Part shown: piece by piece, positions 3,660-27,520 of the stretch
How the letters are laid out: each line of letters starts with the position of its first letter
Numbering within the stretch: the first letter of the stretch is position 1
DNA from: a virus
IMG/VR virus record: IMGVR_UViG_3300050821_003095
Span: 1-27,520 of that record
DNA length: 27,520 nucleotides
Reading direction: 5' to 3' (one strand)
Position numbers and translations under genes: made by a program
The notes under the pieces: generated by a model
Databases searched by the model: none
What the model was told of the DNA's origin: nothing
The model's input: only the letters and a program-made list of their open reading frames with translations

Positions 3660-3780
3660 TGTCGTCCAATTCGGTGGGGTCGATGAATGCGGCAGTAAAA
3701 AACGCCGCCAGCCAACAACCGACCACGACGGACAAGATGAGCCAGCCGGCGTCGATCACCCAGTGCAGAACTTCCCTCAT
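3643..3780 (-). CDS. One-pass small membrane protein in the lysis region (45 aa)
   Basis: The ATG at 3780 overlaps the stop of the phospholipase D-like gene as ATGA. The protein has 45 residues: a short polar N-terminus (MREVLHWVID), one strongly hydrophobic segment at about residues 11-33, and an acidic C-terminal tail (DPTELDDSEPID). It lies between a hydrolase and lysin A in a coupled run of lysis genes, where phages often put holins, antiholins or holin regulators. The shape would suit a pinholin-like or regulatory membrane protein. The separate holin-like gene at 640-831 leaves the division of labour open. The assignment rests on topology and place only. Confidence 0.65.
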   Translation of the reverse strand: MREVLHWVIDAGWLILSVVVGCWLAAFFTAAFIDPTELDDSEPID

Positions 3781-4316
3781 GCCTTCGCCTTCGCGATCAT
3801 GTGCGCGTGAATTGCATCTATCCGCATGCGGGCCTCGGCTGCCCGAGCTGGGCTGATTGACACCGTTAATTCGTTGTCCTGCAGATGTTCTGCAGCGTCA
3901 CTCCAGTTTGTTGAGCCGGTCGCCAAGATCGTTCCGTCGATCATCATCAACTTGAGATGCATGATGCGGCCATGCTCTGAAGATCCGATAGCCACTGAAC
4001 TATTCGGGAATTGTTCTTCGGCGAGGAGTTGCCGCTCGTGTACGCCGCCGGCTTGGGAACCATCGAGGGTGAGCCTCACCCGCACTTTAGGATCAGCCAA
4101 TTTCACCTTTAAAGCTGCTGCAAGATCAGGGTCGTCGAACCCGAACATCGCCAGATCAATTTCTTGATGGGCGTGGTTAATCAGAAACAGCAGCACGCCT
4201 TTGAGGTCGTCCACGGGTGAGTAGAAAGTTCTCACGTCTTGGGGGTATCCCGGCGAGAACGGTGCGGCTTTGAACTGGTCCAGCACTGTAAGGCTCGAAA
4301 GCGGATGAGCTGACAT
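3777..4316 (-). CDS. Phospholipase D-like (single HKD motif) protein
   Basis: This protein has 179 residues. The ATG at 4316 overlaps the upstream stop as TGATG. It carries one complete HKD motif: His120, Lys122 and Asp127 (HLKLMMID), followed by GSTNWS at 134-139. It also has the N-terminal strand-helix pattern of the family (QEIDLAMFGFDD). Single-motif members of about 150-200 residues, such as bacterial Nuc-type endonucleases, work as homodimers that form one active site from two HKD motifs; some relatives cleave phospholipids. There is no signal peptide. It lies between a PE-PPE-type hydrolase and small lysis genes, which could suggest a lipid substrate, but a nuclease that degrades host or competing DNA is equally compatible. 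The family is clear; the substrate is not. Confidence 0.85.
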   Translation of the reverse strand: MSAHPLSSLTVLDQFKAAPFSPGYPQDVRTFYSPVDDLKGVLLFLINHAHQEIDLAMFGFDDPDLAAALKVKLADPKVRVRLTLDGSQAGGVHERQLLAEEQFPNSSVAIGSSEHGRIMHLKLMMIDGTILATGSTNWSDAAEHLQDNELTVSISPARAAEARMRIDAIHAHMIAKAKA

Positions 4317-5044
4317 CAGTAGGTTGGTGTCGCGACGGTGACTGGCCGGTTGTAGGCCGACTCGATGGTGGGACGGATAGCTTCATCGAGGGCGCTCACC
4401 GTGGAGTTCCATGTGGTTCCATACATGGGGACTGGTTGCGTCATAGACCAGATGTAGGTGGTGTTCCCGACAACGTGTGAACCGTTCCCTGCGGCCGTGG
4501 GGTTTGGTGACACGTTTTGATAGTTCGGGTGCACGGAGCCCTGGCCGGCGAGGGCGTTGAAGAAGGCGTTACCGTTGAATGTGCCTGTGGGATAGTCGGT
4601 CCAGCCGTCGTATTGTCTTTTCACGTCGGTTACTTGGTAGGAGCTGCTGGTGGGGAAGTTGACGGCTGTGGTGAACCAGTTCTGCCACTCATTCCCCGCT
4701 TCGGGCCCCAACGCCCCTCCATATGGGCTGACGGAGTTCCCAATGAACGTGAAGGACAGATCAGAGGGGCTGATGGTGCTTGAAGGTCCGTAGTTGGCGA
4801 TCCAATACGAACCCACAACCGCGCCCAATGAGTGCCCGAATACCACCATGTCCCCGGTCCCGGACAGCAGGTAGGAGTTCAACAGTTGGGCGCCCTGCTC
4901 GACGGTCGACAGGAAAAGCCCAAAGTTGTTGTAAGGGACCTGAATGGTGGTTTGTCCGTTGGTGACGGCGCCTTGCAGCATGGTCGGCATGTAGTTGTTC
5001 AACCCGCTGAACGCGCCACCCAGCATGTAAACCGTTGAGGTCAT
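4316..5044 (-). CDS. PE-PPE-domain serine hydrolase (alpha/beta hydrolase)
   Basis: This protein has 242 residues and starts at ATG 5044, next to the stop of the following structural gene. It has an alpha/beta hydrolase core with the elbow GHSLG (Ser72), an Asp in RQYDGWTDYP (Asp146) and a His in VHPNY (His172). The RQYDG..D(F/Y)P block followed by VH..Y is characteristic of the PE-PPE domain found at the C-terminus of mycobacterial PE and PPE proteins, several of which are esterases. Here the domain is free-standing, without a PE or PPE leader or a signal peptide. It is coupled to the phospholipase D-like gene and lies upstream of lysin A. I infer a role against host envelope lipids or in the virion; a tail-associated enzyme is also possible, as it directly follows the tail genes. 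Confidence 0.8.
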   Translation of the reverse strand: MTSTVYMLGGAFSGLNNYMPTMLQGAVTNGQTTIQVPYNNFGLFLSTVEQGAQLLNSYLLSGTGDMVVFGHSLGAVVGSYWIANYGPSSTISPSDLSFTFIGNSVSPYGGALGPEAGNEWQNWFTTAVNFPTSSSYQVTDVKRQYDGWTDYPTGTFNGNAFFNALAGQGSVHPNYQNVSPNPTAAGNGSHVVGNTTYIWSMTQPVPMYGTTWNSTVSALDEAIRPTIESAYNRPVTVATPTY

Positions 5045-5626: not shown

Positions 5627-7780
5627 TTAAACCCATTCGACTTTCAGATATCCAGCTGCGCCGGTTCCTCCGCTGCCGCTGGAGTTTCCGCCGCCGCCGC
5701 CGCCGCCGCCGCCGCCTTGCGCGCCGCCGTTACCGCCGAGGTAGCCGGTAGAACCGTCCGATGAGCCACCACCACCACCTGCGTCTGGGCCACCGATGTT
5801 GTTGCTCGGTGCGGCACCAGGAGCAGAACCGCTGGTGCCTGCTGCGCCGCCGGTAATTCCGCCGCCGTTCGCCCCCGCACTGGCGGCGAACACAGTTGAG
5901 GACGTATTGCGGCCACCACCACCACCGCCGCCACCACATCCGCTACTGCTGTTATTTGTTGGTGCCGGTGCTGCGGCCGCCCCAGTGCTGCCGTTCGCGC
6001 CCGCGGTGCCGTTAGTGGTCGTGGCACCCGATACGCCACTAACCGACGCCGTACCACCTGTACCGCCGGTTCCCGCTGTGCTGCTGCCGCCGTTGGTGCC
6101 TTGGTGGCCGCCGTTCGCAGTACACGTCACTGAACCGGAGGTGAAACTGACCGCTCCACCGTTACTGCCCGGGCTGATCGAGGTTGTCTGCACGACTGTT
6201 GAATAGGTGCTGCCTAGCGATGCGACTGGGATAAAGAACCGTGCGATAGCACCGGCTCCGCCACCACCACCGCCGCCGCCGGACTGTGCGAATGCTGCGC
6301 CGTAGCCGTTTCCGCCGGGGCCGCCTTGACCTATCGCAGTGATCCAGCATCCGGCGGTGTTTGTCGGGACGGCCTGGTTTGTGCGGGCAACGTTGGTTTC
6401 GGTGATCGGGGTGAACTCGACACCTGCTGCCGTGATGGTAGGTGTAACTGTGATCGCCGAGACTGCACGCAATGCTGCCCCAACGCTCACCGCAGGAGTT
6501 GCGGTGACCGCAACCGTTACTGGGAAGGTCCCCGGTGACGCAGCCACCGATATCGATGGGGTTGCTGTCATGGATACGGTTGCCGGCACGATTACCTGTG
6601 CCGCGGCGGACACCGACGGGGTGACTGTGATTGCCGCCGTGTCGGAGATGATGGTGTCCCCGACCACAGAAACTGACGGTGTAGCTGTGATGGCTGCCGA
6701 ACCGAATCTGGTCACCACAGCCGCCGCCGAGACAGATGGGGTGACGGTGATGAGAGCTGAATCGGGTTCCAGGACAACCCCAGCCGTCGAAATCGACGGG
6801 GTGACGGTGACCATTGAAGACTGGGATGTGCTGACCGTCGCGGAGATCAACGGTGACACTGTTTCCGTGCTCGCCGCTAACGTTGTCACACCACCCGCAA
6901 CCGACACCGCGGGTGTCGCAGTGATGGTGGTGGTGACGGGGTCGATCACCGCAGCGGCAACACTCACCGTAGGGGTGGCAGTGATGGAGCTGGTTTGCGT
7001 GGTGATCGCCTGACCCACCACCGAAAACGACGGGGTGGAAGTCACTGCGGAGGCGACGGTGGTACTGGTGGCCGCACTCACTGCGGGTGTCGCGGTTACT
7101 GATGCTGTGTCCGCAAGCACCGCTGAGCCCGCCACAGACACAGTGGATGTTGCGGTGACAGCGACTACCGCCTGCCCCGGTAGAGCGACCGTCGCCGACA
7201 CAGACACAGAAGGGGTAGCTGTGACTGTGGCGGCAATGTTGTTGATCGCATTACCCACAACCCCAACCGTGGGTGCGGCATTCACGGCGACCGCGGCGGT
7301 TTCGATGAGCGTGACCGCCGCAGTGATCGTGGGTGTGACTGTCACTGCGGCAGCAGCGCTCTTGTACACCACCCCCGACGCCGACACTGACGGTGTTGCG
7401 GTGATGAAGATGCTGGTGTCGTCTGACGTAGCCGAAGCTATCGACGGGGTTGCAGTGATGGCGACAGCAATGGGTTTGATCAACGTGGCCGCCACCGAAA
7501 CTGATGGTGTGATAGTGGCGAAGCCACCCGCAGGCACCTGTACGAGTGCCGCCGCAGCAACAGTCGGCGTGATAGTGCTGGCTGATGTGGCGAACTCGAG
7601 CGCCCGAACCATCACAGCCACCGAAGGTGCCGCAGAGACGGCTACCGTCCCAGACTCCCGAACCCCCAAAGCTGCTGAGATAGTCGGAGTTGCGGTGATC
7701 GTAGAGCCGAGGTGGATTTCCGCCCACCACCCCGTAATCGGAAGCGGGGTGTCATCCGTGCTCCACCACGCCGCCGTCAT
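5627..7780 (-). CDS. Tail fibre with tandem beta repeats and a glycine-rich tip
   Basis: This protein has 717 residues; the start at 7780 overlaps the stop of the preceding small gene by one base. Residues 1-25 form a Trp-rich head. Residues 26-458 hold 22 degenerate repeats of about 20 residues with the core (I/V)TATPSVSVAG, likely short beta-strand pairs forming a long shaft. From about residue 460 the protein turns into a glycine-rich domain with many GGxGG runs (GQGGPGGNGYG, then a run of eight glycines). It ends in AAGYLKVEWV, a form of ending shared by glycine-rich phage tail proteins. Such glycine-rich regions act as receptor-binding tips in other phage adhesins. It sits last in the tail block, where host-range proteins usually lie. 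The trinucleotide run at 5688-5716 encodes part of a glycine tract. Confidence 0.82.
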   Translation of the reverse strand: MTAAWWSTDDTPLPITGWWAEIHLGSTITATPTISAALGVRESGTVAVSAAPSVAVMVRALEFATSASTITPTVAAAALVQVPAGGFATITPSVSVAATLIKPIAVAITATPSIASATSDDTSIFITATPSVSASGVVYKSAAAAVTVTPTITAAVTLIETAAVAVNAAPTVGVVGNAINNIAATVTATPSVSVSATVALPGQAVVAVTATSTVSVAGSAVLADTASVTATPAVSAATSTTVASAVTSTPSFSVVGQAITTQTSSITATPTVSVAAAVIDPVTTTITATPAVSVAGGVTTLAASTETVSPLISATVSTSQSSMVTVTPSISTAGVVLEPDSALITVTPSVSAAAVVTRFGSAAITATPSVSVVGDTIISDTAAITVTPSVSAAAQVIVPATVSMTATPSISVAASPGTFPVTVAVTATPAVSVGAALRAVSAITVTPTITAAGVEFTPITETNVARTNQAVPTNTAGCWITAIGQGGPGGNGYGAAFAQSGGGGGGGGAGAIARFFIPVASLGSTYSTVVQTTSISPGSNGGAVSFTSGSVTCTANGGHQGTNGGSSTAGTGGTGGTASVSGVSGATTTNGTAGANGSTGAAAAPAPTNNSSSGCGGGGGGGGRNTSSTVFAASAGANGGGITGGAAGTSGSAPGAAPSNNIGGPDAGGGGGSSDGSTGYLGGNGGAQGGGGGGGGGGNSSGSGGTGAAGYLKVEWV
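6407..7705 (-). repeat. 22 tandem protein repeats of about 20 residues in the fibre gene
   Basis: The 433 codons between 7705 and 6407 divide into 22 units of 18-22 residues. Each has the core T(A/V)TP(S/T/A)(V/I)S followed by a small hydrophobic stretch. At the DNA level the units have a period of about 60 bases but have diverged, so this is an old duplication series. The variable residues follow the core, as expected for a shaft with changing surface loops. Confidence 0.85.
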
Positions 7781-24804: not shown

Positions 24805-26370
24805 TTACAGGACTAGAACATCGGGGCCGTCGGCCATCGAGTAGATGCTGGGGCGGTCATCGGGCAGGTTCTGCAATCCCCATACGGCCCCGATGCCGGC
24901 CATCAAGGGTGCTGTGTCTGTGGGGGATTTGAGGGGGTCGAGGACCCATCCGCCTTCGGGCCCGACTTTCGTTGCCGCGGTAGTGGCGGCGGAGTCCATC
25001 CCCGGGTGGGGTAGGTGTCGGATGCGGCGCTCTTTGAGCGCGTCGAATAGTTGCCCGTGTGCGGCAGCAACTTCCGCGGCTTGCCATTTGATGAACGGCA
25101 GTTTGGCTTCTTCGATCTCCGCCGCCAACGACGCTGCGGGAATCCTCGACCCGATCCGCACCACCACACCGTTGAATCGGGTTCGGTGTTTTTTGAGGAA
25201 GGGGATGACCCAGTCGGTGCCGGGTTGGTCTTCCCACACACCGAAAACCGGTTTCCCCTGCAGATCCAAAGTGGCGCGGGCCAGATATGTTCTGGTTCGG
25301 TCAACGTCGATCTCCACACACACCGACGACGAAGTCTTAGAACCGACGTTGGGGTTGGTGTCGGAGGTGTCGGCCCAACACCCGTCGGGGAATGGTCCTC
25401 CATCGCTGGAGGCGACCCAGATGCAGCGGCACTCTTTATCAAAAACAGCGGCAGGGTCTTCCGCTAACGCATGAATCAGGGACCGTTCGGTGACGCAGTC
25501 GGGGACGATATCGCTGTGATTCATGGACGGGTTAGCCTGCGCCAACGCCTGCATATCCGTTCTCGCGGACGTTGGGGGCGCGGACCACTCGAAGAACCCC
25601 GATGCGACATCGCCAACAGCACTAAGAAGCGCGGCTATCGCTTCATCGGGCTCATCTAGAACCTCTTTATCAGCATCGCCGTCGGGCCAACCCAAATTCC
25701 GGTGGGCTTTGGCCCTCAGATGTCGCAGGACGACAGATTGGAGCGTTCCGGCGTTAGCGAACGCCCACACCTGCGCTTTCGGCCGCGCCATGGTTGTCTT
25801 AGTCACGGACCCCCACGAGCTCCAGGTCTGGTGTTCCTGCAACTCGTCCATCAGGATCAGATCACCGGAGAAACCCTTACCCCCGGCTTTGCTTGACGAT
25901 GCAACCCGGTATTCGCAGCCTGAATCGAGGATTAAACGCTTGGGATGTCCCCGTTTCACGCCTGCACGGTCTTTATCACCTGTTCCCGCGATGAGAGGCT
26001 CGAGTTCGTCGTTGTTCATCGCCCATTCGACGGCGGATTCCCACGACTCTTCAGCCCTGGAAAGATCTTGCGCGGTCGCAATTACCATCCGCGAATCCAG
26101 CGCGTAGATATGCCACAGCGCAAGAATCACCATGAGAAGCGACTTGCCTGACTGTCTGGCAACCTCTACTACCACGGTCCTAAATCTGTAGAGACCGTTG
26201 TCGTCCAGCTCGAGGCCGTGGATCAGAAGCCATTTCTGCCAGGGAAATAGTCGAATCTCGAGGACCGTTTCGGCGAACGCGATGCAGGCGTAGCCGTGGG
26301 TGTTAGCGGGGTCGCTGAGGTCGCGCCGCGGCGGAGTGAAGATACGCGGCGTTTCACAGCCCTTGATCAC
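24805..26370 (-). CDS. terL: Terminase large subunit
   Basis: I chose GTG 26370, which overlaps the stop of the 88-residue gene as GTGA; the frame goes 68 codons further upstream but that part overlaps the neighbour. This gives 521 residues. The protein is the packaging motor and nuclease. Visible motifs are a Walker A-like VEVARQSGKS (about 68-77) and Walker B LILMDE (about 171-176). A C-terminal nuclease part follows, with VEIDVDRTRTYLARATLD (Asp residues) and WVLDPLKSPTDTAPLMAGIG. The classic terminase stretch LMDELQEHQ is present. It works with the small subunit at 27.0-27.4 kb; two other genes lie between them. Confidence 0.93.
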   Translation of the reverse strand: MIKGCETPRIFTPPRRDLSDPANTHGYACIAFAETVLEIRLFPWQKWLLIHGLELDDNGLYRFRTVVVEVARQSGKSLLMVILALWHIYALDSRMVIATAQDLSRAEESWESAVEWAMNNDELEPLIAGTGDKDRAGVKRGHPKRLILDSGCEYRVASSSKAGGKGFSGDLILMDELQEHQTWSSWGSVTKTTMARPKAQVWAFANAGTLQSVVLRHLRAKAHRNLGWPDGDADKEVLDEPDEAIAALLSAVGDVASGFFEWSAPPTSARTDMQALAQANPSMNHSDIVPDCVTERSLIHALAEDPAAVFDKECRCIWVASSDGGPFPDGCWADTSDTNPNVGSKTSSSVCVEIDVDRTRTYLARATLDLQGKPVFGVWEDQPGTDWVIPFLKKHRTRFNGVVVRIGSRIPAASLAAEIEEAKLPFIKWQAAEVAAAHGQLFDALKERRIRHLPHPGMDSAATTAATKVGPEGGWVLDPLKSPTDTAPLMAGIGAVWGLQNLPDDRPSIYSMADGPDVLVL

Positions 26371-26633
26371 ACCGAGGGGAACATGAAGGTGACTGTGGCA
26401 CTCGCCGCAGCCACCGCATACAAGTCGTGCACCACGCCGGCCGCCGATGGGATACGGAACGCCGCCGACGTGGGCCCGACAACGCCGGTCGTGGTAGTCA
26501 CGCCAGGGCCGCCGTAAGTCACCGCAGACGTGCTGTAGACGAGGATGTCGTCGTTCTCGGCGGGAACAGTGCATACCTTTGTTGCGGTCGTGCCGACGCT
26601 CACTGAGCCATGCACGTAAGTTTCGTTAGCCAT
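26367..26633 (-). CDS. Small beta-rich protein between the terminase genes (88 aa)
   Basis: This protein has 88 residues; ATG 26633 has GGAAGG upstream. It begins MANETYVHGSVSVGTTATKV and is rich in Thr, Val, Ala and Gly with strong beta propensity (VTYGGPGVTTTTG, then SAAFRIPSAAGVVHDLYAVA). It ends ATVTFMFPSV. It looks like a small virion or decoration protein rather than a packaging enzyme. It is coupled to the terminase large subunit by GTGA. The same general type (short beta proteins with M..ET..V opening) occurs near the head genes of some actinophages. A decoration or fibre-like function is possible; I recognise no named family. Confidence 0.72.
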   Translation of the reverse strand: MANETYVHGSVSVGTTATKVCTVPAENDDILVYSTSAVTYGGPGVTTTTGVVGPTSAAFRIPSAAGVVHDLYAVAAASATVTFMFPSV

Positions 26634-26714
26634 TCGTTACCTTCCGGGGTAATTCACAGAAAATCCGCAGACATTTCGGGAACAACACCCGCTGATCTGC
26701 TAGTTAATGGCACT

Positions 26715-27005
26715 ATGACAACCATGATCCGCATATTCACCCTGGTGGGTGCGGCGTTTCTGCTGGTCGCACCCGCAGCTCGCGCCGACGAAGGATCGTT
26801 TATCGCCGATCTCCAAAGCCAGGGGGTTCCCACTGGCTGGCCGTTCGTGGTTCAACCCATCGCCGGCACGAACATCTGCAACGAACTCCACAACGGGTTC
26901 ACCCCGCAAAAAGTCGTACAACAGTTCGCGCCGATCCAGGCGAACTACGCCCCAGCTATCGTGGCGACCGCGCAACGCGACATCTGCCCCGACACCCTGC
27001 ACTAA
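26715..27005 (+). CDS. Secreted DUF732-type protein, probable moron
   Basis: This is the only protein gene in the window that I accept on the plus strand. I chose ATG 26715 (96 residues). Residues 1-25 are a signal peptide: basic start (TTMIRIF), hydrophobic core (TLVGAAFLLVAPA) and an Ala-X-Ala site before DEGSF. The mature part has two cysteines and the layout of mycobacterial DUF732 proteins: F..DLQ.QG.P, then NICNELHNGFTP, then an Ala-rich helix and a C-terminal CP pair. DUF732 proteins are small secreted proteins of unknown function in mycobacteria. It is inserted between the terminase genes and ends overlapping the small subunit stop (tail to tail). A TAGTTA sequence at 26701-26706, just upstream of the ATG, might be a weak -10 for a leaderless mRNA. 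No phage role is known. Confidence 0.8.
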   Translation: MTTMIRIFTLVGAAFLLVAPAARADEGSFIADLQSQGVPTGWPFVVQPIAGTNICNELHNGFTPQKVVQQFAPIQANYAPAIVATAQRDICPDTLH

Positions 27006-27424
27006 CCAGTATTTACGCTGGTCATCGACCTAACAGAAGCCAATTTCGACTTCTTCTCATCCCCAGACTTACGGATCTGGCCCATCAACTCCGCGAACTT
27101 CGCAGCCGCCGCCGGCCTCGTCGACAACGCCTTCGGATTGTCCAAAACCTCACACAATGACTCCGCCGCCGCCACCAAATCCGGCACTTTATCGCCGTTC
27201 AGCGACTCCATAGCCAGCCGAAACGCCGCAACCCGCGGTCCCACAACCTCAACAGGGACACGCCCACCAGGCAGAAACGCTAACCCCGCGTTACCCACAG
27301 CAGGCTCGCTCCCAGCCTTCCGGCGCTTCAAATCCTGCTGATACTCCCGCTCAGCCAATTTGCACTGCTCACACCGGCAACCCTGCCTGTAGCCACGCCG
27401 CCCATGACTCGCAATAGTCGGCAT
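27002..27424 (-). CDS. terS: Terminase small subunit
   Basis: I chose ATG 27424 (140 residues), which has a GGAG ribosome site; ATG 27445 is in frame but has a poorer upstream sequence. It begins MPTIASHGRRGYRQGCRCEQ and carries CRCEQCKLAEREYQ, a Cys-rich opening (HG...GY..GCRC..C) common in small terminase-type and related DNA-binding phage proteins. A Gly/Pro-rich stretch follows, then a helical C-terminal part (VVGPRVAAFRLAMESLNGDK, then AKFAELMGQIRKSGDE). It is the first gene of the packaging block and sits next to the candidate operator repeats. The call is by position, size and the Cys-rich start. Confidence 0.72.
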   Translation of the reverse strand: MPTIASHGRRGYRQGCRCEQCKLAEREYQQDLKRRKAGSEPAVGNAGLAFLPGGRVPVEVVGPRVAAFRLAMESLNGDKVPDLVAAAESLCEVLDNPKALSTRPAAAAKFAELMGQIRKSGDEKKSKLASVRSMTSVNTG

Positions 27425-27440
27425 ATTCACTCCAAAACAA

Positions 27441-27520
27441 TGCATAAACCGTGCATAAATCTCTCGTTGTTATACACGTTAGTTGAAAAGTCGTCCGTGA
27501 AAATTGCGGGGGGCCCTCGA
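27441..27520 (-). promoter_or_regulatory. Possible promoter and direct repeats upstream of the packaging operon
   Basis: TGCATAAA occurs twice on the plus strand (27441-27448 and 27452-27459), with a spacing of 11 bp, about one helical turn, so one protein could bind both on the same face. On the minus strand TATAAC (27474-27469) is a good -10 for the terminase operon; no clear -35 is seen at 16-18 bp. The last bases hold a G run and GGGCCC. I see no gene in the final 75 bases. Confidence 0.4.

What the first reader, a model, noticed from the sequence alone, without database searches (positions are those of the whole stretch)
26715..27005. Plus-strand secreted DUF732-type protein inside the packaging block
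A 96-residue protein with a clear signal peptide and DUF732-type spacing of cysteines is inserted on the opposite strand between the terminase small subunit and an 88-aa gene. Bacterial-type secreted genes carried this way are often morons expressed from a prophage, so this may alter the host envelope or secreted proteins during lysogeny. The ATG lies close to a possible -10 sequence, which would suit a leaderless transcript.
Basis: partly seen in the sequence, partly recalled or inferred. Interest (0 to 1): 0.62.

Follow-up and report, generated by a model that had tools for sequence, protein, structure and literature searches.

The report
Stress-promoter secreted gene inside phage late operon
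A phage that probably infects mycobacteria carries, backwards inside its DNA-packaging genes, a small host-like secreted-protein gene with its own promoter, probably used while the virus lies dormant; related phages carry the same cassette in the same place, and its promoter looks like the type read by the host's stress-response sigma factors.

Summary
The ORF at 26715-27005 (+) is a 96-aa protein with a Sec-type signal peptide. It matches Pfam DUF732 above the curated cut-off, lies antisense between a terS-like gene and an 88-aa gene just upstream of terL, and evolves as a coding gene (dN/dS about 0.2).

Three other phages carry a two-gene antisense cassette at exactly this site: A, a membrane-anchored DUF732 protein, and B, the secreted one. 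The window lacks A and has B fused to A's promoter and start. A fifth phage carries A without B under a SigA-like promoter. In other relatives terS abuts terL, so the cassette is an insertion. B has been exchanged between phages (dS 0.40 against 1.2-1.9 for flanking genes).

A homologous reverse-strand DUF732 gene, Adephagia gp40, is published as lysogenically expressed, which supports the moron reading.

The promoter is not SigA-like. It reads GGAACA-N18-GTT, 9 nt before the ATG, and fits the mycobacterial SigH/SigE (ECF) consensus. It is conserved in three phages (one -35 change in a fourth) and predicts a leaderless, stress-induced transcript, on sequence evidence only.

DUF732 function is unknown; my guess is envelope stress tolerance or superinfection exclusion. 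New variant of a known kind.

The parts
26715..27005 (+). Gene B: secreted DUF732 protein, 96 aa
   Evidence: 87% identical orthologue in L004 with dN/dS about 0.2
26715..26786 (+). Predicted Sec signal peptide (24 aa, cleavage after ARA)
   Evidence: Read from sequence; hydropathy; low-confidence N-terminus in the AF2 model
26790..26993 (+). DUF732 domain; predicted four-helix domain with conserved Cys55 and Cys91
26679..26684 (+). GGAACA, putative ECF (SigH/SigE-type) -35 element
   Evidence: consensus GGAAYR-N17-18-GTT in PMC4803200
26703..26705 (+). GTT, putative ECF -10 element, within the conserved GTTAATGG..CTATGACA block; predicted start of transcription at about 26714
   Evidence: G-11 T-10 T-9 position from PMC6411747
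26706..26729 (+). Segment shared with the 5' end of gene A in relatives; gene A (496 bp in L004) is absent after it, so gene B is fused to A's promoter and start
   Evidence: blastn blocks: window up to 26729 pairs with the promoter and A start of L004, window from 26734 pairs with gene B
27002..27445 (-). Flank: 147-aa gene just upstream of terL in this phage group (terS by position); convergent, overlaps gene B by 4 nt at the stop codons
26367..26633 (-). Flank: 88-aa gene, conserved in the cassette-bearing phages, divergent from gene B
24805..26370 (-). terL, large terminase subunit (GTG start, by comparison with L003)
   Evidence: phrog_9 E 2.8e-62; 86% and 78% identical in L003 and L004
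27508..27520 (+). Probable genome (cos) end: GGGGGGCCCTCGA; contig L087 also ends here, and L003 carries it internally

Best explanation
This is a prophage moron. It is a host-derived secreted DUF732 gene with its own promoter, inserted antisense between terS and terL, where the late operon is silent in a lysogen. SHOWN: insertion at a site where relatives have terS abutting terL; the same site filled in four other phages by one or two DUF732 genes on the antisense strand; purifying selection; recent exchange of the gene between phages; a conserved GGAAC-N17/18-GTT element placed so that transcription would begin at or 1 nt before the ATG. INFERRED: host RNA polymerase carrying a SigH/SigE-type ECF sigma factor makes a leaderless mRNA when the lysogen is stressed. 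The product is exported by Sec, processed, and forms a small disulphide-closed helical domain in the periplasm or cell wall. In relatives, partner A displays the same domain on a membrane anchor with a proline-rich stalk. I think the likely benefit is a changed envelope: stress tolerance of the lysogen (about 0.4) or exclusion of superinfecting phage (about 0.3).
For: DUF732 match over the cut-off. L003, L004 and L200 carry antisense A+B at the same site, and L087 carries A with two small genes (Pfam for A and B; L087 domain). terS abuts terL in L005, L006, L007, L013-L015, L018 and L140 and in M. abscessus phages phiT45-1 and prophiGD05-2. B window/L004 has dS 0.40 against 1.47 (terL), 1.93 (88-aa gene) and 1.21 (terS). 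Breakpoints: window and L004 are collinear except for absence of 496 bp (gene A) and about 805 bp (HNH-type gene). Promoter: found upstream of the cassette in window, L003 and L004, with one other site among 4,455 ATGs in 356 kb of strand sequence; L200 has GAAACT-N17-GTT. SigH consensus GGAAYR-N17-18-GTT (PMC4803200) with GTT at -11 to -9 (PMC6411747). Temperate relative: tyrosine integrase in L003's contig. Functional precedent: Adephagia gp40 is DUF732 (40.4 bits), 32% identical to this protein, lies on the reverse strand next to the integrase, and is 'relatively strongly expressed' in a lysogen (PMC11373665).
Against: The window holds no integrase or repressor, so lysogeny is inferred from relatives. 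L200 deviates at one -35 base and L087 uses a SigA-like promoter, so stress control is not universal for this site. None of the 40 chromosomal loci related to A or B that were scanned has a GGAAY-N17/18-GTT site near its start, so the element is not a general DUF732 feature. No expression data exist for this phage. What DUF732 does is unknown.
Confidence: 0.74

Rival explanations
1. Moron as above, but transcribed constitutively in the lysogen by SigA-type polymerase from a weak or non-consensus promoter; the GGAAC...GTT match is incidental or is part of another conserved element such as a repressor site.
For: Adephagia gp40 is expressed in a lysogen (PMC11373665; no stress treatment is mentioned in the passages read) and has TAGGCT 7 nt before its GTG. 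L087's cassette has TTGACA-N16-TAGACT-7-ATG. L200's -35 is imperfect.
Against: No sigma-70-type site was found in 26300-27520. No ANNNT lies at -6 to -13 for a start at the ATG, the signature of 79% of M. smegmatis promoters (PMC6448022). Conservation falls on the two ECF elements with a diverged spacer.
Confidence: 0.35
2. The gene acts in the lytic cycle, for example as a small exported protein that weakens the envelope before lysis or blocks co-infecting phage, and its antisense position has no link to lysogeny.
For: Another phage DUF732 protein, Troll4 gp76, inhibits M. smegmatis growth when over-expressed, toxicity index 4 of 5, in a screen of genes predicted or shown to be expressed in lytic growth (PMC7474061). 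The gene sits inside the late region.
Against: It runs against the late transcript, and its own promoter would face convergent late transcription. Adephagia gp40 is non-toxic and lysogenically expressed.
Confidence: 0.15
3. A degenerate passenger: gene A was lost and B is on its way out, with no present function.
For: Gene A is missing and B is fused to A's first codons.
Against: The frame, signal peptide, both cysteines and promoter are intact. dN/dS between window and L004 is about 0.2. The fusion leaves B directly behind the promoter and in frame.
Confidence: 0.1

Closest known systems
Adephagia gp40 and homologues in related M. smegmatis phages (31 records match L200 gene B at E<=0.01)
   Same: Secreted DUF732 protein of about 100 aa, single gene on the strand opposite its neighbours, lysogenically expressed, start codon close behind a -10-like element
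   Different: Lies beside the integrase, not between terS and terL; -10-like element is SigA-type; no membrane-anchored DUF732 partner annotated beside it; 32% identity
DUF732 genes of M. abscessus prophages (e.g. CCUG48898T-2 gene 70, prophiGD36-2 gene 67)
   Same: Phage-borne secreted DUF732; in CCUG48898T-2 antisense to both flanks; prophiGD36-2 is related by terL (53%)
   Different: Other genome positions (glycosyltransferase region; integrase and polymorphic-toxin region); no ECF-type element seen before the start; 33-34% identity
Chromosomal secreted DUF732 proteins of Mycobacterium
   Same: Same domain and signal peptide; the closest share the C-terminal CPDTLH; up to 45% identity
   Different: Chromosomal setting; no GGAAY-N17/18-GTT near the start
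Phage morons / lysogenic-conversion genes; prophage-mediated defence genes of mycobacteriophages (e.g. Sbash 30/31, PMC6426596)
   Same: Extra gene or gene pair with its own promoter in an otherwise silent region
   Different: Antisense within the packaging genes; DUF732 has no shown defence activity and no PADLOC match

Membership tests
DUF732 (PF05305) | Profile match above the curated gathering score | tested here: met
   26.4 bits against 22.4
DUF732 (PF05305) | Two conserved cysteines in the domain | tested here: met
   C55 and C91 invariant in 16 sequences
DUF732 (PF05305) | Exported (signal peptide or membrane anchor) | tested here: inconclusive
   Signal peptide read by eye plus hydropathy; no dedicated predictor available
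Phage moron | Extra gene between two genes that are adjacent in relatives | tested here: met
   terS abuts terL in many relatives
Phage moron | Own promoter (and usually terminator) | tested here: inconclusive
   Conserved ECF-like element; no plus-strand terminator-like site found
Phage moron | Expressed from the repressed prophage | not testable with these tools
   Only precedent: Adephagia gp40 (PMC11373665)
Phage moron | Base composition unlike the phage | tested here: not met
   Gene 60.8% GC, window 59.8%; often but not always seen in morons, so weakly informative
SigH/SigE-type promoter | GGAAYR-N17-18-GTT with GTT at -11 to -9 | tested here: met
   Window GGAACA-N18-GTT; L003 and L004 GGAACT-N17-GTT (sixth base as preferred by SigE); L200 GAAACT
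SigH/SigE-type promoter | Transcription depends on that sigma factor | not testable with these tools
   Needs reporter or RNA-seq in sigma-factor deletion strains

The most novel reading that the evidence does not exclude
Temperate mycobacteriophages plug an envelope gene into the host's ECF stress regulon: SigH or SigE, released by oxidative or envelope damage (perhaps by an attacking phage), directly transcribes a leaderless prophage mRNA for secreted and membrane-tethered DUF732 proteins that reshape or shield the cell envelope.
Probability: 0.36. Interest if true: 0.66.

Novelty: new variant of a known kind. Interest (0 to 1): 0.44.

Why it matters
DUF732 is a family of exported proteins spread through mycobacterial genomes with no known function. 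A phage cassette that keeps a secreted and a membrane-tethered DUF732 gene together, moves between phages and carries a host stress-sigma-type promoter gives a small, genetically tractable handle on what the family does. If the promoter is real, it is a case of a prophage tying a cargo gene directly to the host's envelope or oxidative stress response, testable with one reporter plasmid in M. smegmatis. It also marks the terS-terL gap of these cos phages as a cargo site.

Tried and rejected
Chance ORF: rejected (profile match, conserved orthologues, dN/dS). The 131-aa upstream-extended ORF (ATG 26610): rejected, since conservation across phages centres on ATG 26715. SigA promoter: no site. Plasmid origin: no match in PLSDB. 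Known defence system: no PADLOC match. Fold homology to solved structures: AF2 model good for the domain, but no PDB fold match with E below 1 and no convincing PDB sequence match; the best viral folds are other mycobacteriophage DUF732 proteins. Search for the 16-mer GTTAATGGCACTATGA in viral contigs: 12 contigs, two of them known family members; the others were not examined and are about what chance would give in a collection of that size. terL scan of genome contigs found nothing and the gene-B scan gave four distant loci; of 397 Mycobacterium genomes only two have a similar terL (52-53%).

Full report
OBSERVATION. The window is a 27,520-base virus record whose right end is a probable cos end: the same GGGGGGCCCTCGA ends contig L087 and lies inside the longer contig L003. 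The structural genes run leftward from there. The plus-strand ORF 26715-27005 encodes a 96-aa protein with a signal peptide. It passes the DUF732 cut-off (26.4 against 22.4 bits) and hits phrog_658 at 1.9e-11. The AF2 model has four helices with high confidence in the domain (47 of 96 residues at pLDDT 90 or more) and a low-confidence signal region. The gene is antisense to the late genes and converges on the terS-like gene, overlapping it by 4 nt at the stop codons.

A TWO-GENE CASSETTE IN RELATIVES. The nearest relatives by terL are L003 (86%), L004 (78%) and L008 (74%, cut off inside terL). L003 and L004 both have, antisense between terS and the 88-aa gene, a gene A (168-180 aa: a short cytoplasmic part with the conserved ETQSxHAWSQ motif, one membrane helix, a proline-rich stalk, a C-terminal DUF732 domain) that overlaps by ATGA a gene B (92 aa, secreted DUF732). 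A scan with the 88-aa protein gave a further phage, L200, with the same A+B arrangement. L087 has a 67-aa membrane protein, a 63-aa helix-turn-helix-like protein and gene A, but no B. In other relatives terS directly abuts terL, so the block is an insertion. A different Mycobacterium prophage (L139) has three tRNA genes and an unrelated antisense membrane gene in the same gap, so the gap looks like a general cargo site.

HOW THE WINDOW'S VERSION AROSE. Against L004 the window is collinear from the 88-aa gene through the promoter and the first codons of gene A. It then skips 496 bp (gene A), is collinear through B (88% DNA identity), skips about 805 bp (an HNH-type gene of L004), and rejoins in terS. 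The window's B therefore sits directly on A's promoter and start (ATGACAACC|ATGATC). The simplest reading is loss of gene A. B has moved between phages: for window/L004, dS is 0.40 in B but 1.47 in terL, 1.93 in the 88-aa gene and 1.21 in terS, while against L003, whose terL is closer, B is only 44% identical.

PROMOTER. Between the 88-aa gene and the ATG the four phages share GTTAATGG-NN-CTATGACA and, 17-18 bases upstream of GTT, GGAACA (window), GGAACT (L003, L004) or GAAACT (L200), with a diverged spacer. The M. tuberculosis SigH consensus is GGAAYR-N17-18-GTT with GTT at -11 to -9. [quoted passage not shown]). Transcription would start at 26714, one base before the ATG, giving a leaderless mRNA, a common type in mycobacteria (PMC6448022). 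In 356 kb of strand sequence from this phage and relatives, the element with correct spacing to an ATG occurs four times, three of them here. In the window alone the chance expectation over the whole 27.5 kb is 0.24 (two matches were found there, the other inside the capsid gene). No SigA-type site is present. L087 instead has TTGACA-N16-TAGACT seven bases before the ATG of its first cassette gene. The ECF assignment rests on sequence alone.

WHAT IT MOST LIKELY DOES. The closest experimental precedent is Adephagia gp40, a reverse-strand gene next to the integrase that I find to be DUF732. It is 'relatively strongly expressed' in a lysogen and non-toxic (PMC11373665). Another phage DUF732, Troll4 gp76, inhibits growth when over-expressed (PMC7474061). 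L003's contig has a tyrosine integrase. I therefore commit to a prophage moron that alters the host's envelope or exported proteome, probably on stress; the benefit (stress tolerance or superinfection exclusion) is a guess.

RELATION TO KNOWN KINDS. DUF732 genes are already known in actinobacteriophages. What differs here is the site, the paired secreted and tethered design, the mosaic exchange and the ECF-type promoter.

Noticed in passing
L134:1109-2119 (contig of L003, G001:21108-22121): The relative's genome carries a full PPE-family gene (PF00823, 196.6 bits, plus PPE-SVP) after the lysis region: a candidate ESX-secreted moron in a temperate phage.
   Followed up: partly
window 4316-5044 (-): A 242-aa PE-PPE-domain hydrolase (PF08237, 69.2 bits) lies among the tail and lysis genes.
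   Followed up: partly
window 3777-4316 (-): A small PLD-like protein (PF13091, 63.8 bits) next to the lysis genes; a similar ORF is present in L003's contig.
   Followed up: no
window 5627-7780 (-): A 717-aa protein made of many degenerate TATPTVSVAA-type repeats with a glycine-rich C-terminus; no Pfam match.
   Followed up: no
L139 3050-3800: In another Mycobacterium prophage the terS-terL gap holds tRNA-His, tRNA-Glu and tRNA-Gly genes and an antisense membrane-protein gene.
   Followed up: partly
L087 4598-5004: Before gene A, a 67-aa membrane protein and a 63-aa helix-turn-helix-like protein follow a SigA-like promoter flanked by a GTTGAC/GTCAAC inverted repeat: a possible self-regulated cassette.
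   Followed up: no
L087 3998-4570 (-): The 88-aa gene's homologue in L087 is enlarged by an inserted stretch of about 100 aa that looks like a beta-rich domain.
   Followed up: no
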